NCBI GenBank assembly: GCA_018240325.1
Contig: JAFEFZ010000258.1
Span: 1-38,262, forward strand
Direction of reading: 5' to 3'
Length of the DNA: 38,262 bases
Origin: Pseudomonadota bacterium
GTDB lineage: Bacteria > Pseudomonadota > Gammaproteobacteria > Burkholderiales > Burkholderiaceae_C
The notes beneath the pieces are model-generated. The model saw nothing but the letters and a program-made list of their open reading frames with translations. It was not told the origin of the DNA and searched no databases. The translations under genes and the position numbers were made by a program. This document shows positions 5,557-18,628 of this stretch, one piece after another (the stretch's first letter is position 1; every line of letters starts with the position of its first letter).

Positions 5557-5952
5557 CTAACGGGACGCGGGCAGTACGGGCGCAGCGGGCGGCGCAGCGC
5601 CCGCCGGGTTGATCGTGATCCCGCGCCGGCCCAGTTCGGCGACGAGCGTGCGGGCGTTGGTGTTGCCGCTGTCTGCCAGGCGCTGCGTGTCCGCCGCGAC
5701 CGCGTCGAGCGACGCGCGCAGCTTGGCCGCGCTGTCGACAGCCGCCTGCTGGCCGGAGCGCGCTGCCTGCAATGCCTCGCGGCTGTCGATGAGTTGCAGG
5801 GTCTGGAACCCGAGCCAGACGAATATGGCAGCCAGCCCCAGCAACACCGGGACGAAGGCGCTGTGCGTCGCGCTCCGCGGTGCATCGTCGCTGCGAGGCG
5901 GCGGCACCTGTGCGTGCTGGAGGCTCGGGCCGCTGGAAGACTCGGCATTCAC
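5557..5952 (-). CDS. Single-pass membrane coiled-coil protein, second of a paralogous pair
   Basis: A 131-aa protein of unknown function. It has a polar N-terminal tail of about 32 residues, one transmembrane segment (FVPVLLGLAAIFVWLGFQTL, about 33-52) and a probably periplasmic helix rich in Ala/Gln/Asp (to about residue 100), followed by TLVAELGRRGITINPAG and a Pro/Ala tail. It starts with GTG at 5952, overlapping the upstream stop as GTGA, so the two genes are translationally coupled. The end resembles the upstream gene (TMLAGHGITYTVN with an Ala/Pro tail), which suggests the two arose by duplication. It is the last gene of the putative sigma-54 operon that contains the giant PEP-CTERM protein. 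A role in assembling or anchoring that protein is an inference from position only. Confidence 0.7.
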   Translation of the reverse strand: MNAESSSGPSLQHAQVPPPRSDDAPRSATHSAFVPVLLGLAAIFVWLGFQTLQLIDSREALQAARSGQQAAVDSAAKLRASLDAVAADTQRLADSGNTNARTLVAELGRRGITINPAGAAPPAAPVLPASR

Positions 5953-6278
5953 CGGCGCTTCCCCGCGCCGGCCGGTGGCATTGCGGACGCGGCCGGCGCG
6001 GCCGGGCTCGCGGCGACGTTGACGGTGTAGGTAATCCCATGCCCGGCGAGCATCGTCCGCACCTGTTCGTCGCTGCCGCGTGCGGCCAGCTCGGCGAGCG
6101 CGCGGACGAGTTCCCGATACAGCCCCTCCAGCTGAACCGACTGCTGCACGTACTGCTGCCGCGCATTGACTTCAGCCTGCGCGGCGAGGTTGGCGCGCGC
6201 CAGCACGAAGTTGGCGATCGCCAGCGCCAGGCAGGCTGCGCCGGCAGCGCTGGAAATCCAGAACTGCGCTCGGGTCAT
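5949..6278 (-). CDS. Single-pass membrane coiled-coil protein, first of a paralogous pair
   Basis: A 109-aa protein of unknown function. It has a short N-terminus (MTRAQFW), a transmembrane helix at about residues 8-27, then a long Gln/Ala/Glu-rich helix likely to form a coiled coil (NARQQYVQQSVQLEGLYREL). Next comes a segment QVRTMLAGHGITYTVNV and an Ala/Pro-rich end finishing in basic residues. It begins 21 bases after the stop of the giant PEP-CTERM gene and ends in a GTGA overlap with the next gene. The arrangement (one N-terminal anchor, periplasmic helix, short conserved end) fits a small periplasm-facing scaffold, but I recognise no named family. Confidence 0.72.
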   Translation of the reverse strand: MTRAQFWISSAAGAACLALAIANFVLARANLAAQAEVNARQQYVQQSVQLEGLYRELVRALAELAARGSDEQVRTMLAGHGITYTVNVAASPAAPAASAMPPAGAGKRR

Positions 6279-6299
6279 CGGCGGCCTGCCCGTCGAAGC

Positions 6300-9200
6300 T
6301 CAGTGCGCCATCCGCCGCCGCGTCGCGAGCGCAGCGATACCTGCCAACAGCAGCAGCGCCAGCGTGCCCGGCTCAGGCACCGAGCCCTGGCGGACTACGT
6401 TCGCCCGCAGATTTACGGTTATCGCGTCGAGCACCAGGTCCGACTGGGAGTCGTTGTGGCTGATCCCGTTGAAGGCGAAGCTGCCGGTGAACAGGCCCTC
6501 GTTCAACGCGTCGAAGCTCAGCGTCAGGCCGCCGAGCGTCGCACCCGCCGCGAGGTCGACCGCGCCGAACCCGCTGCCGAGGAAGTCGCCCAGGCCGGCG
6601 AGGTTGAAGCTGCCCATGAGGTCGTCGGCCGGGCCCGTCACGTCGTTGGTCAGTGCCAGGATCCCGGTGCTGCTGCCCGAGCCGATCAACAGGTTGCCGA
6701 AGTCCAGCGTGCAGACCAGCCCGAGGCAGCCGAAGCTTCCCGCGCCGCCGCTTTTGCTGAACAGCGCCTTGGCGATCTCGTTGACCTGCGCCGACAGCGT
6801 CACCTGTTCGCTGCCGAGGTCGAGGTCGGCCATGTCGGGGTTCTGGCTGACGAAGGCGACGGTGGCGCTGCCGTTGAACACGCCGGCACTGGCCGTGGAC
6901 AGCCCGACGACCAACGTCCCGCCGGCGTTGCTCTGCCCGGCACCGAGCCCCGCGGAGCTGCCGCCGGCGGTGAACGGGCCGACGGCGCCGCCGGCGCTGG
7001 CTTTCATCGTGTCGTTGAGCGCGGTCGCCGCGGCGGCGTTGGTCACCGTCACGTTCTGCGCCGCCACGACATCGCCCTTGCGGACGACGCCGAAGCTGAT
7101 CACCGGCGTGTTCAGCTGCGCGACGGCAGGCGTGTAGACCTTGCCGCTGACCGCGACGTCGGCCGACCCGATCGAGATCGCGCTGAAGCCGCTGGTGCCG
7201 GCGCCGTCGGATTCGAGCGCAACGTTGACGTTGCCGCCGAACGAACCGGCCGCAGCGGTCGACAGGCTGACCGTGCGCGATTCCGATCCCCCGGCGGCGA
7301 TCAGTCCGGTGGTGGCCGGCGGCGCGACCGTAAACCCGGCGGGTGCGGCGCCGATCGTGCCGCGCAGGCCCTCGCTGTAGCCGTCGTTGGCGGCGGTGTT
7401 GGCGATGTTCAGCGTGCCGGTCGCCGCAGCGTCGCCGACGCGGCGCGCGGCGAGGGCAACCGACGGCGTCACGCTGGCCTGCGCGAGCCGGTAGACCTCG
7501 GCGTTCATCGTCACCGACTGCGATGGCAGCGCAGTCGGCACGCCGCTGTTGAAGCTGCCGTCGGACTGGAAGTCGACCGTCACCGTCCCGCTCTTGGCGC
7601 CGGCGGTCGCGAGCCCGTTGAGCGTCGCGCTCATCGACGCGTTGTTCGACGCGCCCGCCGCAAGGCCGGCGATGCTGCCGCCGTTGTGGGTGGCGCCGCC
7701 GCTGGTGCCGCCGAAGGCGGCGTTCAGCCCTTCGGCCGGGCCGGCCGCGAGGTTGCTGATCGTCAACTGCTGCGTCTGGCTGCTGACCTGCCCCTCACGG
7801 AACTTGCCGAAGTTCACGCTCGTCGGCGCCAGGCCCGCGACCGCCAGGTTGCCGATCTGCGCCTGGATCGTCGCCAGCGACTGCAGGAACTCGCTCGGCA
7901 GGTTGAGGATGCCGAGCCCGCTGGTGGTGGCGCCGTTCGAGGCCAGCACCACCTCGACGCTGGCGTTGACGCTGCCCGCGGCACCGGTGTTGAGCGTGAC
8001 CTTCAGCGTGGTGTTGTCGCTGGCGCCGGCGGCGAGGTTGGTCAGCGAACCGGTGCCACTGAGCAGCCCCGCACCGGTGCCGGTGATCGCGCCGAAGCCG
8101 GCGTTCAGGCCCTCGCTGAACCCGTCGGCGAGCGCGTTGTTCGACACCGTGATGAAGCGCTCCTGGGTCGTACCGACGAGCACATTGCCGAAGTTCAGGT
8201 TGCCGATCACGGCCGGTGCGGCTACGCGGTAGCCGGTGGCGGTGAGCGCGATGTTCTGCTGGTTGGCATTGATCGTGCCGAAGCTGCCGTCGATCAGCTG
8301 GCCGTTGGTCGTGTACTGGATCGCCATCGAGCCGTTGTTCACGCCCGCCACGCCGCCGGCCACCGACGCGGTGATCGCGTTCGCCAGGCTGCTGCCCGGG
8401 TTCATGAAGCCGGCGCCGAGGTTGTTCACGGCGCTGAAGTTGCCGGTCATCGTCGGCGTCGCGGCGATGCCGAGGCGCTCGGCGCCGGCGCCGCTGGCCG
8501 TGTTCTGCACCGCGAAGTCCTGCGACGGCTGCGTGCCGCCGACGCGGAAGTTGCCCAGGTTCACCGGCCCCGGCGAAGGCGTGGCGTTGCCCTGGGCCAG
8601 CGTCGTGACCAGGCCGCTCAGGTTGATGAGCTGCGTCGGCACGTTCTCGAAGTTGCTGTAGACGGCGATCGTCTGGCCGGTGAGCGCGCCGCCGGTCGCG
8701 CCGCTCATCGTCACCGCCAGGTTGCCGGAGTTGCCGCCGGCGGCGATCGGGCCGAAGTTGCCGGCGGTGACGCCGCTGCCCGACAGCCGCGCGTCGGTGA
8801 TGTTGCCGCCGTTGGCCGCCGTCTGGATCGCTCCGCGGATGCTGGCGCCGGTGCCGTTGTTGGCGACCTGGTAGTTCACCGTCTTCGAACCGTTGCCGCG
8901 CACCGCGCCGATGTCGAGGGTGAAGGTGTTCGCGCCGGCCGGCGTCAGCGCGGCCGGGTTGCCGGTGGCGGTGATCGTCTGCGATGCGTTCAACCCCTGG
9001 ATCTGCCCGGCGCCGGTCACGCCGGCGCGGCGGTCGAAGGTGTTGCCGCTGGTGAAGCCGGTGTTGGTGTAGTCGCTGCCGACGATGATGTCGGCGGCGG
9101 CGGCGATGCTGCCGCCACTGCGGTTGAGGTTGCCGCTGATCGACAGCGGAGTCGCCGCTGCCACCGTCGTCGTGCCGCCGGAGAGGTTGTTCAGCGTGCC

Positions 9201-12200
9201 GGTCAAGGTGCGCGGCGCGCCGCCGCTGACGTTGAACTGCGCGTTGTTGTCGACGTTGGCGGTGATCGTCCCGCCGGAGTAGTTCAGCTTGTCGTTGTTG
9301 ATGATCAGCGGGGCAGTGAGCGCGCCGCCGGCGACGTTGAGCGTGCCGCTGGCGCTGTCGGCGTTCGGCCGGATGCCGATCGTTCCGGTCGAGACGAGGT
9401 TGCCGCCGTTCAGCTGGTAGACCCCGGTGCCGCCCGAGCCCTGCCCGAAGGTGGCGCCGCCGATCTGCATGAAGGTCGTGTTGTGCGTGCCGCCGTTCTG
9501 GACGAAGGTGCCGCTGCCGGCCAGGCCGACCCGCGTGCCGCCGTCGACGCCGTTGGTGTTGACGACGTTGAGTACGCCGTCGTGGAGCTGGTAGTTGCCG
9601 ATGCTGCCCGCGCCGGCGCCGACGCGAAGGCCGCCGGCGGTCACGGTCGTGCCGGCGCCGTTCTGGCCCATGAGGGCGCTGCCGAACTCGCCCAGCGTCA
9701 GGCGGTTATCGACCGCCAGCACGCCGGTGCCGAACACCGACACCGTCGCGGAGCCGCCGGCGAGCGCGCCGGCGATCAGGCTGCCGCCGCTGACGACGTT
9801 GAAGCTGCCGCCCGCGACGCCGAGGTTGCCGATGCCCTCGACGCCGAAGCGCGCCTGGCCGGCGATGTCGACGACACCGCCGCTGAGGTTGAAGTTGCCG
9901 ACCTTGCCCGGGTTCACGCCTGCGTCGAGCTTGATCGCTGCGGTCGAGCCGCCTTGTTGGGTGAAGGTGCCGGTGCCGTCGCGCGCGACGACGATGCCGG
10001 TCGAGCCGTTGACCTGGAGCTGGCCGCCGGTGATCTTGTAGCTGCCGACTTCGCCCGCAAGGTCGCCGACGAGCAGCCCGCCGCCGATCGTGTGCACCGA
10101 GGTGCCGTGCTGCTCGAACTCGCCGCCGCCGCCGTTGCCGATCGACACGTTGGCCGCCACGTCGAGCGTGGCGCCGCCCGACAGCGTGTACTTGCCGGCT
10201 TTGCCGACGAACAGGCCGAAGATCGGGTCGTTGACGAACACCTGCCCGCCGCTCTGGTCGACGCGGGCGTTGATCGCCGAAGCGCCGCCGCCGACCGACA
10301 GGTTGTTCGCGACGTTGATCGTTCCGGCGGTCATCGCCAGGATCGAATCGGCGCCGATGAAGATGCCAACGTTGAGGAAGTCGGTGTTGAAGGTGCCGCC
10401 GCTCTGGTTGAAGCGCGCGATTCCGCCCTCGCCGACATAGGCCACGCCCGACTGCAGTACGCCGGTGCCCGAGAGGTTGTAGGTGCCCGAGGCGTTGCCG
10501 CTGCCGATGAAGAGCTGCCCGGTGATGTGCGTGCCGCCGCTGTGGTTGAACACGCCGTTGGCTGGTGTCCCTAGGCCGGCCTCGCCGATGCGGGTCAGGC
10601 CGCTGACCGTCACGGTACCGGCGCTCATCGTGTAGGTGCCGGTGCCGCCGCCGATGTCGCCCCCACCGCCGACGATCAGGTTGCCGCCGACGAGCGCGGC
10701 CCCGCCGGTCTGGGTGAAGGTCCCGAGCCCGCCCGGTTCGCCGGCGAAGCCGTTGTTGCCGACGCCGATGACGACGTTGTTGCTCGCATCGAGCGTGCCG
10801 CCTGACAGGTTGTATTGGCCGAACCGCCGGGTCGGATCGGTGTTCGGGCCATCGCCGACACGCAGCTGGCCCGCGACGTTGACCGTGCCGTCGGCCTGGT
10901 TGAGGACGCCGCGGCCGAAGCCGCCGACCCAGAGGTCGTTGAAGCTGGCCACCGCAGTCGCGCCGCTGATGTTGTAGACGGTGTCGTAGTCGGATCCGCC
11001 GCTGTTGCCGACGATGAACAGGCCGGAGTTGGTGTGCGTGCCGCCGGTCTGGTCGAACAGGCTCTTGTTCGACATGCTGGCGAAGCTGCCGCTCGACAGG
11101 CTGCCGTCGTTCAGCGTGTAGCGGCTGGTCGCGCCGCCGGCGCCGTCGTCGACGCCGTCCTGATAGAAGGCGCCGTTGACGATCACCGCGCCGCCGTTCT
11201 GCACGAACGCGCCCTTGCCGGCCGCGCTCGGGAAGCCGAGCGTCGGGTCCGTGGTCCCGATGCCTAGGTCGCCGTTGATCGTCAGCGTTCCGGCGTCGAT
11301 CGTGTAGGTCCCTTGGCCGCCGCTTTGCGCGCCGAGCACCAGGGTCTGCAGATCGGCCGTGCCGTCAATGTGGTTGAAGGTGCCGACGCCGGCGTTGCCG
11401 ACGAACGTCGTCGGCGTGCCGCCGCTGACCGTGAGCGATCCGCCGCCGTCGAGGTTGTAGGTGCCGTCACCGGTCGCCTGGTTGCCGAGGATCAACTCGC
11501 CGGTCACGTTGTGCGTGAAGCCGTTGTTGTTGAACACGCCGGTGCCGGCGTCGCCGACGATCAGCTGGTCGTTCAGCGTGCCGCCGTTCAGGTCATAGGT
11601 GCCGAACCCGCCCGCGGCGCGACCGAGGACCAATTGGCCCGCAGAGACGTCTCCGCCATCCTGCGTGAATACGCCGGTGCCGGCGTCGCCGACGACCAGC
11701 GCGGCGGCGACGTTCAGCGTTCCGCCGACGAGCGAGTAACTGCCCAAAGCGCCGGCCTGCTCGCCGAGGATCAGGTCGCCACCGTCGCCGCCGACCTGCA
11801 CGACCGAATCGGCATGGTTCTGAACGATGCTGCCGGACGACCCGTCGAGCGCGCCCACGACGAGGCGCCCGCCGCTGCCGATCTGCAACTGCTGACCCAC
11901 GCCGAGCTGGTACGCAGCGGTCCCGGCGCTGCCGACGGTCATTTCCTGTACCGACAGCGCGCCGGTGTCCTGGTGGACGACCGTCACCCCATCGATCAGC
12001 AGCGTCTTGTAGTTCGGATTCGCGGTCTCGTTGTAGTCGACGGTGGTGACGCCGCCCAAGCCATCGGTCACCTCGACGTCGTAGTCGTCGGCCGGGACGC
12101 CGTTGTCCCAGTTCGAAGCGTTGCTCCAGTCCGAGTCCGCACCTTGCCACGAAGTCAACTGCGCCTGAGGCGCGCTCGTCATGCCCAGCGCGAAGATCGC

Positions 12201-12236
12201 GCAAGCGATACGGGTCAGCTTGGGACGGTAGGCCAT
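6300..12236 (-). CDS. Giant PEP-CTERM beta-repeat surface protein
   Basis: A 1978-aa predicted exported protein. The ATG at 12236 has an excellent GAGGAG ribosome-binding site and gives a signal peptide (MAYRPKLTRIACAIFALGM, likely cleaved after PQA). Residues of about 30-1050 consist of dozens of short degenerate repeats of the pattern G-x-[FY]-x-x-x-GG-x(4)-[LV]-x-[VI]-G, as in autotransporter-like beta-helix passengers. About 1080-1940 holds several repeats of 110-130 residues, each beginning near NFG-x-[LVF]-x-x-G and ending in an Ig-like beta pattern, similar to choice-of-anchor domains. The C-terminus is a textbook PEP-CTERM tripartite signal: VPEPGT, hydrophobic LALLLLAGIAALA, basic TRRRMAH. 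In this family exosortase recognises the signal and processes it at the inner membrane; no exosortase gene lies in the window. Probable role: cell-surface or extracellular-matrix structure. Confidence 0.9.
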   Translation of the reverse strand: MAYRPKLTRIACAIFALGMTSAPQAQLTSWQGADSDWSNASNWDNGVPADDYDVEVTDGLGGVTTVDYNETANPNYKTLLIDGVTVVHQDTGALSVQEMTVGSAGTAAYQLGVGQQLQIGSGGRLVVGALDGSSGSIVQNHADSVVQVGGDGGDLILGEQAGALGSYSLVGGTLNVAAALVVGDAGTGVFTQDGGDVSAGQLVLGRAAGGFGTYDLNGGTLNDQLIVGDAGTGVFNNNGFTHNVTGELILGNQATGDGTYNLDGGGSLTVSGGTPTTFVGNAGVGTFNHIDGTADLQTLVLGAQSGGQGTYTIDAGTLTINGDLGIGTTDPTLGFPSAAGKGAFVQNGGAVIVNGAFYQDGVDDGAGGATSRYTLNDGSLSSGSFASMSNKSLFDQTGGTHTNSGLFIVGNSGGSDYDTVYNISGATAVASFNDLWVGGFGRGVLNQADGTVNVAGQLRVGDGPNTDPTRRFGQYNLSGGTLDASNNVVIGVGNNGFAGEPGGLGTFTQTGGAALVGGNLIVGGGGDIGGGTGTYTMSAGTVTVSGLTRIGEAGLGTPANGVFNHSGGTHITGQLFIGSGNASGTYNLSGTGVLQSGVAYVGEGGIARFNQSGGTFNTDFLNVGIFIGADSILAMTAGTINVANNLSVGGGASAINARVDQSGGQVFVNDPIFGLFVGKAGKYTLSGGATLDVAANVSIGNGGGGEFEQHGTSVHTIGGGLLVGDLAGEVGSYKITGGQLQVNGSTGIVVARDGTGTFTQQGGSTAAIKLDAGVNPGKVGNFNLSGGVVDIAGQARFGVEGIGNLGVAGGSFNVVSGGSLIAGALAGGSATVSVFGTGVLAVDNRLTLGEFGSALMGQNGAGTTVTAGGLRVGAGAGSIGNYQLHDGVLNVVNTNGVDGGTRVGLAGSGTFVQNGGTHNTTFMQIGGATFGQGSGGTGVYQLNGGNLVSTGTIGIRPNADSASGTLNVAGGALTAPLIINNDKLNYSGGTITANVDNNAQFNVSGGAPRTLTGTLNNLSGGTTTVAAATPLSISGNLNRSGGSIAAAADIIVGSDYTNTGFTSGNTFDRRAGVTGAGQIQGLNASQTITATGNPAALTPAGANTFTLDIGAVRGNGSKTVNYQVANNGTGASIRGAIQTAANGGNITDARLSGSGVTAGNFGPIAAGGNSGNLAVTMSGATGGALTGQTIAVYSNFENVPTQLINLSGLVTTLAQGNATPSPGPVNLGNFRVGGTQPSQDFAVQNTASGAGAERLGIAATPTMTGNFSAVNNLGAGFMNPGSSLANAITASVAGGVAGVNNGSMAIQYTTNGQLIDGSFGTINANQQNIALTATGYRVAAPAVIGNLNFGNVLVGTTQERFITVSNNALADGFSEGLNAGFGAITGTGAGLLSGTGSLTNLAAGASDNTTLKVTLNTGAAGSVNASVEVVLASNGATTSGLGILNLPSEFLQSLATIQAQIGNLAVAGLAPTSVNFGKFREGQVSSQTQQLTISNLAAGPAEGLNAAFGGTSGGATHNGGSIAGLAAGASNNASMSATLNGLATAGAKSGTVTVDFQSDGSFNSGVPTALPSQSVTMNAEVYRLAQASVTPSVALAARRVGDAAATGTLNIANTAANDGYSEGLRGTIGAAPAGFTVAPPATTGLIAAGGSESRTVSLSTAAAGSFGGNVNVALESDGAGTSGFSAISIGSADVAVSGKVYTPAVAQLNTPVISFGVVRKGDVVAAQNVTVTNAAAATALNDTMKASAGGAVGPFTAGGSSAGLGAGQSNAGGTLVVGLSTASAGVFNGSATVAFVSQNPDMADLDLGSEQVTLSAQVNEIAKALFSKSGGAGSFGCLGLVCTLDFGNLLIGSGSSTGILALTNDVTGPADDLMGSFNLAGLGDFLGSGFGAVDLAAGATLGGLTLSFDALNEGLFTGSFAFNGISHNDSQSDLVLDAITVNLRANVVRQGSVPEPGTLALLLLAGIAALATRRRMAH

Positions 12237-12271
12237 GGTGATCTCCTCTTCTGCGGAATCGGTCGAGCCGA

Positions 12272-12691
12272 TCAGGGTTTGGCCGCCGGCGTCTTCTGCG
12301 CTTCGGCGATCAGTTGGGCGACCTTCGAGTCGGCTCCGACCGGCTCGATCATCAGGATGGTTCGGGCGTTGAGCACCATGTATCCGGGCGCGTGCCACTC
12401 GCGGCCGCGGCGGATCAGCACGCTGGTCGGCTGCTTGGTCTCGGGGTTGACCTGCTGCTGGACGTAGAACACGTCGTCGAGCCGCGGGTAGTCGGTACCG
12501 AGCGCGGACAACTTGCCGAAGAACACCTGGCCGTTGGCCAGGAACACCGCCTGATACTGGGAATCGAACTTCGGCGCCGACCCGCCGCCGCAACCGGCGA
12601 GCGAGATGGAGAACAACATCAGCGCAGCCACCCGTTGCAGGCGGCAGCTCAGGCTCGAACGGCGCCCCTCAGGAAGTTTGACGTGAATCAA
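12272..12691 (-). CDS. Predicted lipoprotein, first gene of the PEP-CTERM operon
   Basis: A 139-aa predicted lipoprotein. From the TTG at 12691 the N-region is MIHVKLPEGRRSSLSCRLQR, followed by a hydrophobic core and the lipobox LAGC (Cys 34). The mature protein is compact, with segments such as YQAVFLANGQVFFGKLS, YPRLDDVFYVQQQV and MVLNARTILMIEPV. This alternating beta pattern resembles a small beta-barrel domain of unknown function. The TTG is supported by GGGAG six bases upstream and by its distance from the sigma-54 site; a GTG at 12709 would lie almost at the predicted transcript start. The gene ends 35 bases before the giant PEP-CTERM gene, on the same strand and probably in the same transcript. 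Confidence 0.75.
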   Translation of the reverse strand: MIHVKLPEGRRSSLSCRLQRVAALMLFSISLAGCGGGSAPKFDSQYQAVFLANGQVFFGKLSALGTDYPRLDDVFYVQQQVNPETKQPTSVLIRRGREWHAPGYMVLNARTILMIEPVGADSKVAQLIAEAQKTPAAKP

Positions 12692-12697
12692 CAGATT

Positions 12698-12702
12698 CTC
12701 CC
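12698..12702 (-). promoter_or_regulatory. Ribosome-binding site deciding the TTG start of the lipoprotein
   Basis: Read on the minus strand this is GGGAG, six bases before the TTG at 12691. It favours that start over the GTG at 12709, which has no such site and would sit only a few bases from the predicted transcription start. Confidence 0.6.
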
Positions 12703-12726
12703 GATGCACTGACGCCCAGATACGAA

Positions 12727-12742
12727 TGCAAGGTTCGCGCCA
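12727..12742 (-). promoter_or_regulatory. Sigma-54 (RpoN) promoter of the PEP-CTERM operon
   Basis: On the minus strand the sequence reads TGGCGCGAACCTTGCA. It matches the sigma-54 consensus TGGCACG-N4-TTGCW with exact spacing and a single change (A to G within the -24 box). The invariant GG and GC are in place. Transcription would start near 12716, about 25 bases before the TTG start of the lipoprotein gene. RpoN control of PEP-CTERM genes, with a PrsK/PrsR-type two-component system, is described for other PEP-CTERM bacteria. No bacterial enhancer-binding protein is encoded in this window. Confidence 0.75.
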
Positions 12743-12758
12743 ACAACCTAAGTTGTTG
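12741..12758. repeat. Inverted repeat overlapping the -24 element
   Basis: CAACAAC-CTAA-GTTGTTG: perfect 7-bp arms with a 4-base spacer. The left arm touches the -24 box of the sigma-54 promoter. Its position makes it a candidate operator, but the arms are low in complexity. Confidence 0.5.
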
Positions 12759-12771
12759 ATTCTGAAAGTGG

Positions 12772-12799
12772 GCACCGAACGGGCTGTAAAGCGCACCGA
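12772..12799 (-). promoter_or_regulatory. Phased direct repeats upstream of the sigma-54 promoter
   Basis: The heptamer TCGGTGC (minus strand) occurs at 12772-12778 and 12793-12799, exactly 21 bp apart, so both copies face the same side of the helix. They lie about 30-57 bp upstream of the -24 element. This is close for an enhancer-type site but possible for an accessory regulator. Evidence is limited to spacing and identity. Confidence 0.3.
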
Positions 12800-13094
12800 C
12801 AGTCGGCGAGCGGCTCGCGCCCGGGCCCCGCTGCGACGGCGGTTTCGCGTTCCGGCCAACGCTCATGTGCCGCGGTGCGCGCAAACGCCAGCCTGCCCCG
12901 TTCGCGCGCCGCGCAACGTCCGAGCAGCCATGCCACGCACATCGGCCACGCGCGGCCGGCCGCGTGGCACGCCTTGTCAGCCCAGTGCGTGGCGGATGCG
13001 GCCGAACCCGTCGAGGCCGGAGGTGAACGAGGCCACCATCAGCGAAGCCCGAGTCCCTTCCAATGAGGTGCGAGCCTTGGGGCTGGGTTCGTGA

Positions 13095-16650: not shown

Positions 16651-18498
16651 TCACTTCTTCGCGACCTTCACCGGCGCGGCGATCGACGCGGCCGGCGCAT
16701 CGGCGGCCTTCGGCACCACGCCCTGCGGCTGTTCGCCGTCGGGGTACAGGCAGATGAACGACGCGCGGCCGCCCTCGATGCCGTAGGCCGGCAGGTTCGA
16801 CGAACTCGAGCAGATGCCGCCGTCCTTCGTGAACACCAGATCGCGCAGCCAGGTCACCCGCGTCGGCATCGCGTAGCTGACGAAGTCCTGCGTCTTCGGG
16901 TCGAAGCGGAACATGCGGTCGGACATGTTCGAGGTGATCCACACCTGTTGCGTCTTCGGGTGCACCGCGAGCGCGTAGGGCACCTCGTACTCGTTGTGCG
17001 CGAGCAACGGCAGCTTGAAGGTCTCGAAGCGCTGCGTCTTCGTGTCGAACTTCATCAGTCCCGACTCGTCGAAGGCCGGGATCCACAGGTTGCCCTGCGC
17101 GTCGAAGCGCAGCCGCCGCGGGCCCTTCAGCGGCGTGTCCCACTCGGTGACCTTCAGCGTCTTCGCATCGATGCGGCCGATCTTGTGCGCGTAGAGCTTG
17201 GCGTACCAGATCGAGCCGTCGACCGGGTTCACGTCGATGCCGTACGGGAAGGTGAAGGCCTCGCGGCCCAGGTCGGCCCACTTGTGGTGGCTCACCCCCA
17301 TCTGCAGGTTCTGCTTGGGGAACCAGGCAGCGATCTTCAGCAGGTACGGGAACGCGTATTCAGTGACGCCGCGCCAGAAGCCGTTCTTCGGCAGGTTGAC
17401 GATCGTGAACTTCTCGGTCTTCGGGTCGAAGCGGCCGACCTCGTTGGACACGACGATCGTGAACCAGACGATGCCGTCCTGGTCGATGCGGATCGTGTGC
17501 GGGTACAGGTGCGTGCGGCCGACGTCGTAGAGCTTGATCTTCTTGGTCACCGGGTCGAAGGAGCCGATCGTCGACGACAGCGCGTTCGTGAACCAGAAGC
17601 GGCCGTCCCTGGCCTGCGCCATGCTGTGCGGGCCGTGCTTGCCGGTGAACACGCCGATCGGCAGCTGCACGCCGGCAAACACGCCGCCTTCGGGCAGGTC
17701 GGAGTCGGGCAGCTTGTGCTGATCGATCTTGCCGGTCGTGCGGTCGAGTTCCCAGATCACGTCGTGGCCCTCGTCGACGCCGTAGAGCTTCTCGTCCTCG
17801 CCGACGTCGGCGTCGTGGATGAAGCTCAGCCCGTCGCCGACGACCCACTCCTTGACCAAGGCCCGCGCGACCACCGGGTCGAAGGGATGCTGCTGCACCG
17901 CGGCGACGGGCTTGCCGTCGAAGCCCTTGGCGAGCGTTGTCGTGATGTCCTTCGCCTCCTTGTTCGTCAGCAGCGCGAAGTAGCCCTCCATGCGGCGCAT
18001 CGTCTGGGCCCAGGCGCTCTCGTCCTTGACCGCGCGCGTCAATTCGTTGCCGACCTGGTGGCAGTAGTTGCACTGGCTGATGAAGGCGCTGCGCGAATCG
18101 TGGTTGGGGAAGCTGAGCTTGGTCAGCTGCGCCGACGCCGACAGGCTGGCCGACAGCTCGGCGGCGACGCTGTGGCGCGTCAGCGCGAAATCCAGCTCGT
18201 GTGCGCCGCTGCCGTCGCCGAGGTTCAGCGGCCGGACGTCGTCCTTGAAGTACGGCGCACGTGCACGCAGCGTCACCGGGCCCTTGAAGTCAGCCTGCAG
18301 CGTGTAGCGGCCCTGCGCGTCGGTGTAGACGGTGTCGCGCTGGTCTTGGGCGGCATCGATCGCGGTCACCATCGCGCCGGCGACCGGCTTGCCGCCGCTG
18401 GCGACGGTGCCGCTGAAGCTCGCGGCCAGCGCCAGCGGGCTCGCCAGCAACAACGCCGCACCGCGCAGCATGTGGTGTGTCCGGACGGTGTGGGGCAT
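16651..18498 (-). CDS. Exported haem-motif protein with streptogramin-lyase-like beta-propeller
   Basis: A 615-aa protein with a signal peptide (HMLRGAALLLASPLALAAS). From about residue 28 to 105 there is a carboxypeptidase-regulatory-like beta-sandwich (FSGTVASGGKPVAGAMVTA, TDAQGRYTL). A single c-type haem motif CNYCH lies at 143-147, within SAFISQCNYCHQVGNEL. From about 230 to the end repeated blades of the form [FL]DPxTxx[FI] and DGxxWFT make up a Vgb/SMP-30-like propeller (GRFDPKTEKFTIV, GRIDAKTLKVTEW, KFDTKTQRFETF). Virginiamycin B lyase has this fold, but the haem-binding motif suggests a periplasmic redox enzyme or electron-transfer protein. It is the first gene of the AraC-linked operon, with AGGAG before the ATG. 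Confidence 0.85.
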   Translation of the reverse strand: MPHTVRTHHMLRGAALLLASPLALAASFSGTVASGGKPVAGAMVTAIDAAQDQRDTVYTDAQGRYTLQADFKGPVTLRARAPYFKDDVRPLNLGDGSGAHELDFALTRHSVAAELSASLSASAQLTKLSFPNHDSRSAFISQCNYCHQVGNELTRAVKDESAWAQTMRRMEGYFALLTNKEAKDITTTLAKGFDGKPVAAVQQHPFDPVVARALVKEWVVGDGLSFIHDADVGEDEKLYGVDEGHDVIWELDRTTGKIDQHKLPDSDLPEGGVFAGVQLPIGVFTGKHGPHSMAQARDGRFWFTNALSSTIGSFDPVTKKIKLYDVGRTHLYPHTIRIDQDGIVWFTIVVSNEVGRFDPKTEKFTIVNLPKNGFWRGVTEYAFPYLLKIAAWFPKQNLQMGVSHHKWADLGREAFTFPYGIDVNPVDGSIWYAKLYAHKIGRIDAKTLKVTEWDTPLKGPRRLRFDAQGNLWIPAFDESGLMKFDTKTQRFETFKLPLLAHNEYEVPYALAVHPKTQQVWITSNMSDRMFRFDPKTQDFVSYAMPTRVTWLRDLVFTKDGGICSSSSNLPAYGIEGGRASFICLYPDGEQPQGVVPKAADAPAASIAAPVKVAKK

Positions 18499-18586
18499 CG
18501 GGGTCTCCTGTCGTGTCGCACTCGCGGCGGAATGCCGCGCCGGCGCTCTTGCAATCCCGCGATGCTCGCGGCCGCGGGCGGAGCGC

Positions 18587-18628
18587 ACAATGTCCGCCAC
18601 CGACAGCGGCCTGTCAGTTCCCGACAGC
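18587..18628 (-). promoter_or_regulatory. Direct repeats and candidate promoter between the AraC regulator and the operon
   Basis: The octamer CCGACAGC occurs at 18600-18607 and 18621-18628, exactly 21 bp apart. That is two helical turns and the usual spacing of AraC/XylS half-sites. Between them lies CTGTC, which makes a partial palindrome with the first copy. On the minus strand CTGACA (18617-18612) and CATTGT (18592-18587) could serve as weak -35 and -10 boxes with a 19-bp spacer. The adjacent AraC-type regulator is the natural candidate to bind here. Confidence 0.45.

What the first reader, a model, noticed from the sequence alone, without database searches (positions are those of the whole stretch)
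5557..12742. Sigma-54-driven operon: lipoprotein, giant PEP-CTERM beta-repeat protein, paralogous membrane pair
Four same-strand genes with short gaps (35 and 21 bp, then a 4-base overlap) follow one well-formed -24/-12 site. Seen: the promoter, the PEP-CTERM tail, the lipobox, the two single-pass proteins. Known: PEP-CTERM proteins depend on exosortase and are often under RpoN/PrsR control. Inferred: the lipoprotein and the membrane pair are dedicated partners for exporting, anchoring or assembling the 1978-aa protein, a set I do not know as a described system.
Basis: partly seen in the sequence, partly recalled or inferred. Interest (0 to 1): 0.72.

Follow-up and report, generated by a model that had tools for sequence, protein, structure and literature searches.

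The report
Helper genes for giant surface proteins
A bacterium related to Rubrivivax carries a tightly controlled operon that makes a very large surface-sorted protein together with three small, unnamed membrane or lipid-anchored proteins, whose relatives keep such surface proteins company in other bacteria and so look like helpers whose job has still to be tested.

Summary
The finding holds, on the minus strand. A TTG-started lipoprotein (LP), a 1978-aa PEP-CTERM protein and two single-pass membrane proteins (A, B) are spaced exactly as stated. The promoter is confirmed: the -24/-12 site lies 35 nt before LP, and a box of the kind reported for the activator PrsR lies 42 nt further up. An exact genome-wide scan finds that box only twice, both before a PEP-CTERM gene. 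The genome encodes exosortase A and PrsK-PrsR-PrsT.

A and B occur in the same 11 of 100 genomes, all with exosortase and a homologous giant. A profile scan found 42 loci; all have A then B, and 33 have the giant directly upstream. LP is a separate module: none in the other pair loci held, but beside PEP-CTERM or exosortase-A genes in 5 of 6 other genomes. Its model is an Sm-like barrel. None of the three matches a Pfam or NCBIfam family credibly.

Limits: six genomes have giants without the pair; five loci have the pair after a PpiC-type foldase instead; an exact box stands before only 2 of 22 relatives' giants; A-B paralogy is weak. That they fold, hold or hand over the giant is inference.

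The parts
12785..12801 (-). PrsR-type box (Haft 'motif 1'), TGTCGGTGCGCTTTACA
   Evidence: Only match in the window with at most 1 mismatch; one of 2 exact matches of TGTCNNNNNNNTTTACA in the whole 4.18-Mb genome, the other also upstream of a PEP-CTERM gene; reversed-pattern control 0. The TTTACA end and 17-nt length come from PMC1569441 section 7; the TGTC half was read from this window.
12727..12743 (-). sigma-54 -24/-12 site TTGGCGCGAACCTTGCA, 42 nt after the box, 35 nt before the LP start
   Evidence: spacing inside the 32-92 nt range of PMC1569441
12272..12691 (-). LP: 139-aa lipoprotein (LAGC lipobox), predicted Sm-like beta barrel plus C-terminal helix
   Evidence: mean pLDDT 78.5, 7 sequences; Foldseek: 3by7 and LSm/Sm chains, best E 1.8e-4
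6300..12236 (-). Giant PEP-CTERM protein, 1978 aa: signal peptide, beta-rich repeats (both by inspection), six choice-of-anchor-D stretches, PEP-CTERM tail
6312..6380 (-). PEP-CTERM sorting signal of the giant (TIGR02595 match)
5949..6278 (-). A: 109-aa single-pass membrane protein, conserved QQ(Y/F)(V/I)QQS..LE..YR core and HGITYTVN end
5557..5952 (-). B: 131-aa single-pass membrane protein, long helix (33-94), short helix (98-109), conserved RGITIN end; GTG start overlapping A by 4 nt

Best explanation
This is an accessory-bearing operon of the exosortase A (XrtA)/PEP-CTERM system. Shown: a PrsR-type box and a -24/-12 site stand before a four-gene operon; the genome encodes PrsK-PrsR-PrsT and exosortase A; the A-B pair is a conserved two-gene unit that mostly sits next to PEP-CTERM giants with choice-of-anchor-D domains; the lipoprotein family sits next to PEP-CTERM or XrtA genes in other genera. 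Inferred: PrsK/PrsR and RpoN switch the operon on with exopolysaccharide production; the giant passes the inner membrane by Sec and is held there by its C-terminal helix until exosortase A cleaves it. A and B, each with one membrane helix and a helical periplasmic part ending in a conserved GIT strand-like motif, form a complex beside the giant that keeps its repeat region from misfolding or hands it to the exosortase. The Sm-fold lipoprotein acts later, probably at the outer membrane (Gly after the Cys), in anchoring or display. The product is likely a matrix or floc protein.
For: Promoter; own-genome XrtA, PrsK, PrsR and PrsT all above cut-off. Pair: A in 11 of 100 and B in the same 11 of 100 genomes; all 11 have exosortase (67 of 100) and the giant's C-half (17 of 100); chance of the latter 9e-11 ignoring kinship, 1e-7 within the 60 same-genus genomes. 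42 of 42 loci have A then B; giant immediately upstream in 33 of 42, downstream in 1. A and B distances correlate at r = 0.91, largest of 1000 permutations 0.38. LP: 3 of 6 other loci directly before a PEP-CTERM-type gene (one cut by the contig end, so its tail is unseen), 1 directly after one, 1 in an XrtA locus. The alternative neighbour of the pair is a PpiC/SurA-like foldase. Precedent: RpoN-dependent pepA involved in floc formation in Aquincola (PMC9850573, passages read).
Against: Six genomes have homologous PEP-CTERM giants and no pair, so the pair is not needed for every such giant. Five loci (L052, L056, L060, L062, L065) have the pair after a PpiC-type foldase and no giant beside it, and three of those genomes (G459-G461) show none at E <= 1e-6, nor does that of L068; L066 and the second pair of G004 (L047) also lack one next door. 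Giant distances follow those of A and B only loosely (r about 0.35, above the permutations, but partial 0.10 and 0.06). An exact PrsR-type box stands before only 2 of 22 relatives' giants (L061, L074; L046 with two mismatches), and only 1 of 9 mostly Rubrivivax-like giants has a good -24/-12 site, so the control seen here is not general for pair operons. No physical interaction or function is shown.
Confidence: 0.55

Rival explanations
1. A and B are a general envelope module (for example for periplasmic folding or cell-envelope biogenesis) that acts on many substrates and has only been captured by PEP-CTERM operons.
For: In five of 42 loci the pair follows a PpiC-type foldase instead of a giant (Pfam for L060; the same protein at 83-90% identity in L052, L056, L062, L065), and three of those genomes show no homologous giant. 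Weak matches to FtsL and T2SS GspM models. Giant sequences follow the pair only loosely.
Against: 34 of 42 loci have the giant next door, and 0 of the 83 genomes without a homologous giant (E <= 1e-10) among the 100 relatives has the pair.
Confidence: 0.22
2. A and B are a sensor or regulatory couple that reports on giant or matrix status to the cytoplasm through B's variable N-terminal tail.
For: B has a variable cytoplasmic tail, a membrane helix and a periplasmic helical part; three of 45 A proteins match a chemoreceptor ligand-domain model weakly (best E 0.0025).
Against: No kinase, anti-sigma or DNA-binding domain seen at a credible score; the B tail is not conserved; regulation is already accounted for by PrsK-PrsR.
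Confidence: 0.1
3. The genes merely share a transcript; the lipoprotein in particular is a passenger.
For: LP is missing from the other pair stretches held and from 392 of 399 genomes of the order.
Against: LP sits beside PEP-CTERM or XrtA genes in 5 of 6 other genomes, and L106 repeats the box (one mismatch), -24/-12, LP, repeat-protein order.
Confidence: 0.13

Closest known systems
PEP-CTERM/exosortase A (XrtA, EpsH) protein-sorting system
   Same: PEP-CTERM tail on the giant, exosortase A with XrtA-associated neighbours and PrsK-PrsR-PrsT in the genome, PrsR-type box plus sigma-54 site
   Different: PMC1569441 reports most PEP-CTERM genes as single-gene operons and names no such pair or lipoprotein in the parts read (abstract and other passages, section 7); here three small genes stand in one operon with the giant
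RpoN-dependent pepA of Aquincola tertiaricarbonis (floc formation)
   Same: PEP-CTERM gene behind a TGGCAC/CTGCTT sigma-54 promoter, with PrsK and PrsR found among the floc genes (PMC9850573, passages)
   Different: In the passages read a terminator separates pepA from the next gene, prsT; the window operon is a giant with three small neighbours
Bitopic FtsL/FtsB or T2SS GspM proteins
   Same: small, one membrane helix, helical periplasmic part
   Different: profile matches are few and weak: A, FtsL models 1 of 45 in Pfam and 1 of 45 in NCBIfam; B, ftsL_broad 3 of 45 and T2SSM 2 of 45
Sm/LSm-like barrels (3by7 and LSm rings)
   Same: predicted fold of LP
   Different: LP is a lipoprotein or membrane-anchored; identity 8-23% in the 50 listed hits; RNA binding not tested

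Membership tests
PEP-CTERM protein | C-terminal PEP motif, hydrophobic stretch, basic end above model cut-off | tested here: met
   TIGR02595 21.1 bits vs cut-off 16; Pfam PF07589 20.6 vs 20.7
PEP-CTERM protein | N-terminal signal peptide | tested here: inconclusive
   MAYRPKLTRIACAIFALGMTSAPQAQ looks like one by inspection; no signal-peptide program was available
Exosortase A system | exosortase A in the same genome | tested here: met
   TIGR03109 338.6 bits vs 208 in L090
PrsK-PrsR regulon | PrsK, PrsR, PrsT present | tested here: met
   792.4, 732.3 and 827.8 bits, in tandem in L122
PrsR/sigma-54 regulated gene | motif 1 and -24/-12 site at stated spacing | tested here: met
   the paper's logos are not held, TGTC half taken from the window
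PrsR/sigma-54 regulated gene | transcript start and dependence on rpoN | not testable with these tools
   needs the cell
Bacterial lipoprotein (LP) | lipobox with Cys after signal segment | tested here: met
   LAGC by inspection; three of the six homologues (L107, L110, L111) have no such Cys and look membrane-anchored
FtsL or GspM family (A, B) | credible match to the family model in most members | tested here: not met
A-B paralogy | significant profile similarity over most of the length | tested here: inconclusive
   hhalign 86% over 66 columns and 88% over 28 columns

The most novel reading that the evidence does not exclude
The A-B pair is an undescribed inner-membrane assembly complex of the PEP-CTERM/exosortase system: a heterodimer that holds giant repeat proteins at the periplasmic face during folding and exosortase transfer, with the Sm-fold lipoprotein as a second, separately exchanged partner. 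It would be a substrate-dedicated helper of a kind I do not know for this system.
Probability: 0.35. Interest if true: 0.68.

Novelty: new variant of a known kind. Interest (0 to 1): 0.52.

Why it matters
PEP-CTERM proteins are involved in floc formation of activated-sludge bacteria (PMC9850573, passages), yet to my knowledge (recalled, not searched exhaustively) how very large substrates are kept export-competent and handed to the exosortase is open. A small, conserved pair that travels with one class of giant substrates, in groups including Accumulibacter and Rubrivivax, makes that question testable by deleting two short genes.

Tried and rejected
Chance promoter: rejected, because the box plus -24/-12 combination recurs at a second PEP-CTERM gene of the same genome and the box matches exactly nowhere else in it; it also recurs in L061 and L074 (exact box, 98 and 87 nt before the site; 98 is just beyond the published 92) and L106 (one mismatch). 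It is not general: of the 9 other PEP-CTERM-scored places in the genome (one below cut-off) only that one shows it. L123 and L125-L131 show no box with at most two mismatches (L131 one with three), though the frame tested in L125 and L127 reached the end of the stretch held. The LP genes of L107, L108 and L109 show no box.

Four genes as one conserved set: rejected; in the other pair loci with a guessed giant start mostly 1-5 kb upstream of it was held, so an LP further off would be missed. Known names for A, B and LP: no credible family for A or B in Pfam or NCBIfam (the commonest hit is a coiled-coil toxin-subunit model in 6 of 45 B, best E 0.0003; the window's B scores 13.4 bits against its cut-off of 125); LP none in either for 7 of 7 members at E <= 0.01. 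Solved structures by sequence: for A mostly designed helical proteins (best E 4.6e-9, on an 18-residue stretch) and a ribosomal bL12 (0.07); for B an FtsB chain (0.36) and a receptor-lysozyme fusion (0.62). The model of B is a long helix and was not searched for folds. The large plus-strand frame 5880-10574 inside the giant is taken as a GC-rich antisense artefact by inspection. A sigma-54 start at Rubrivivax-like giants: mostly not found. Start codons there were guessed by a simple rule: 26 giants tried, window included; 3 (L063, L075, L079) gave none; of the other 22 relatives, 20 were used (L050, whose guess is probably wrong, and L068 left out); the window was compared at LP.

In print: searches (PMC open library) listed no paper that I could see to be on such a pair; (choice-of-anchor D with PEP-CTERM) listed none at all. 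From PMC1569441 I read section 7 and passages, from PMC9850573 and PMC12019908 passages, the rest only as listings with abstract starts.

Full report
What is there. The operon lies on the minus strand of a 38-kb contig (G000:C175) of a 4.18-Mb, 98.8% complete genome. By protein A the nearest named loci are Rubrivivax metagenome-assembled genomes and an Ideonella strain. Gene order is LP (12272-12691), giant (6300-12236), A (5949-6278), B (5557-5952), with gaps of 35 and 21 nt and a 4-nt overlap.

The promoter. PMC1569441 (section 7) describes, before 99 of 167 proteobacterial PEP-CTERM genes, a 17-nt motif 1 ending in TTTACA, a spacer of 32-92 nt, and a sigma-54 motif 2 averaging 71 nt (23-221) before the start codon. 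The window has TGTCGGTGCGCTTTACA, 42 nt, then the -24/-12 site, then 35 nt to the LP start. The -24/-12 site alone would not be convincing over 38 kb. The test that matters is the genome-wide one: TGTCNNNNNNNTTTACA occurs exactly twice in the genome, 0 times when read backwards, and the second place is also upstream of a PEP-CTERM gene (277 aa) with its own -24/-12 site 86 nt on and 38 nt before the ATG. The pattern was taken partly from the window, so the window's match is not independent; the second match is. The genome has PrsK, PrsR and PrsT in tandem and an exosortase A locus. In the ten Accumulibacter-type giants and the G087 giant, 7 of 11 have a -24/-12 score of at least 0.86, against 4% of 165 control genes in the same 20 loci, five of the seven 55-87 nt before the start; these loci are related to one another. 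In the nine other loci scored, mostly Rubrivivax-like, 1 of 9 does. Against generality: only 2 of 22 relatives' giants have an exact box in the scan.

The membrane pair. A and B were searched separately in the same 100 genomes (60 of the genus, own included, and 40 others of the order). Each hits 11, and they are the same 11; G004 has two copies. All 11 have exosortase (67 of 100) and all 11 have a homologue of the giant's C-terminal half at E <= 1e-10 (17 of 100). Six genomes have such giants and no pair (G003, G032, G038, G040, G044, G053), and a profile of A finds none there either. Of the nine giant loci fetched from them (L112-L120), six are whole frames and three (L114, L117, L119) are cut at the contig start; all nine end in what reads as a PEP-CTERM tail. 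A scan of the genome-contig collection (84,980 species) with the A profile gave 42 loci in Rubrivivax, Accumulibacter, other Betaproteobacteria, Lamprobacter and bins labelled Desulfovibrionales and Proteobacteria; the scan starts from two peptide patterns, so more distant relatives can be missed. Nine of the 42 are contigs already used for the profile (same lengths); 33 are new. B follows A in 42 of 42. The giant's C-half is immediately upstream in 33 of 42, downstream in 1 (L055), 3 are at a contig edge (L052, L068, L081), and 5 have none (L056, L060, L062, L065, L066). L068, though at an edge, has an 856-aa PEP-CTERM gene without choice-of-anchor-D directly downstream. In L060 the gene before A is a PpiC/SurA-like foldase by Pfam; the same protein stands there in L056, L062 and L065 (89-90% identity) and its last 60 residues in L052 (83%). 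So 5 of 42 loci have the foldase in the giant's place. Of ten genomes queried for giants, six have one (among them those of L052 and L065, on other contigs); G459, G460, G461 and G466 (L056, L060, L062, L068) show none at E <= 1e-6. Among the 11 other pair loci of the relatives, the window giant matches a frame upstream in 8, downstream in 1 (L042) and none in L045 (contig edge) and L047.

What the pair looks like. A has about 8 residues before its one membrane helix, then a conserved helical-looking stretch ending HGITYTVN; B has a variable N-terminal tail, one membrane helix, a helical stretch and RGITIN (topology by inspection). AlphaFold gives B as a helix from 33 to 94 and a short helix from 98 to 109 (mean pLDDT 81.3, pTM 0.43). 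A and B distances among 33 loci (window, L046, L055 and 30 of the 33 with a giant upstream; L059, L075 and L084 left out) correlate at 0.91, while each correlates with the giant at only 0.34-0.35, above 1000 permutations but near zero once the other partner is allowed for. So A and B behave as one co-inherited unit, most simply a complex, and the giants, which are repeat proteins, drift or recombine faster. Of five partner proteins scanned from other loci, four carry four to seven choice-of-anchor-D stretches and L068's does not; two of the four (L048, L067) gave no TIGR02595 hit at E <= 0.01, though L067's tail reads VPEPATM and L048's VPVPGTL.

The lipoprotein. LP was found in 1 of 100 relatives (its own) and 7 of 399 genomes of the order (own included). 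The six others come from four genera; L106, L107 and L110 share one. In them LP lies directly upstream of a repeat protein gene cut by the contig end (L106, TIGR04393 22.9 bits, cut-off 23), directly upstream of PEP-CTERM genes (L108, L109), directly after one (L107), inside an exosortase-A locus (L110; TIGR03097, TIGR03087, TIGR03099 above cut-off), or with only a distant PEP-CTERM frame about 7 kb off (L111). L106 repeats the window's layout including a box with one mismatch and a -24/-12 site. The LP model is an Sm-like barrel. L107, L110 and L111 lack the lipobox Cys and begin with what looks like a membrane helix.

Reading. The promoter elements, the PEP-CTERM nature, the exosortase A context and the two co-occurrence patterns are shown. 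That A and B form a complex is a fair inference. That this complex folds, holds or hands over the giant, and that LP helps anchor it, is inference from position, topology and the alternative foldase neighbour.

Novelty. None of A, B or LP has a credible match in Pfam or NCBIfam, and six literature searches listed no description. The system as a whole is the known PEP-CTERM/exosortase A system with an apparently undescribed accessory module.

Noticed in passing
window 12741-12758 (-): A 7-bp inverted repeat CAACAAC-TTAG-GTTGTTG overlaps the start of the -24 element; it could be a further regulator site.
   Followed up: no
L052, L056, L060, L062, L065 just before A: In these betaproteobacterial bins the A-B pair follows a PpiC/SurA-like foldase gene instead of a giant (Pfam for L060; homologues by tblastn); in L060 a gene that I recall as YciB-like lies further up.
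   Followed up: partly
G000:C28:1372-1388 (L132, L124): The only other exact PrsR-type box of the genome, before a 277-aa PEP-CTERM gene, with a -24/-12 site 86 nt downstream.
   Followed up: partly
L112-L120: Giant PEP-CTERM frames homologous to this one but without the pair; the longest open frame is 3444 residues (L116). In L112 the next frame begins like another such repeat protein.
   Followed up: no
window 16651-18600 (-): 649-aa frame with a virginiamycin B lyase-like propeller and a carboxypeptidase-regulatory-like domain.
   Followed up: no
L108:7412-8218 (-): A second PEP-CTERM gene lies directly upstream of LP in L108, so LP is sandwiched between two PEP-CTERM genes.
   Followed up: no
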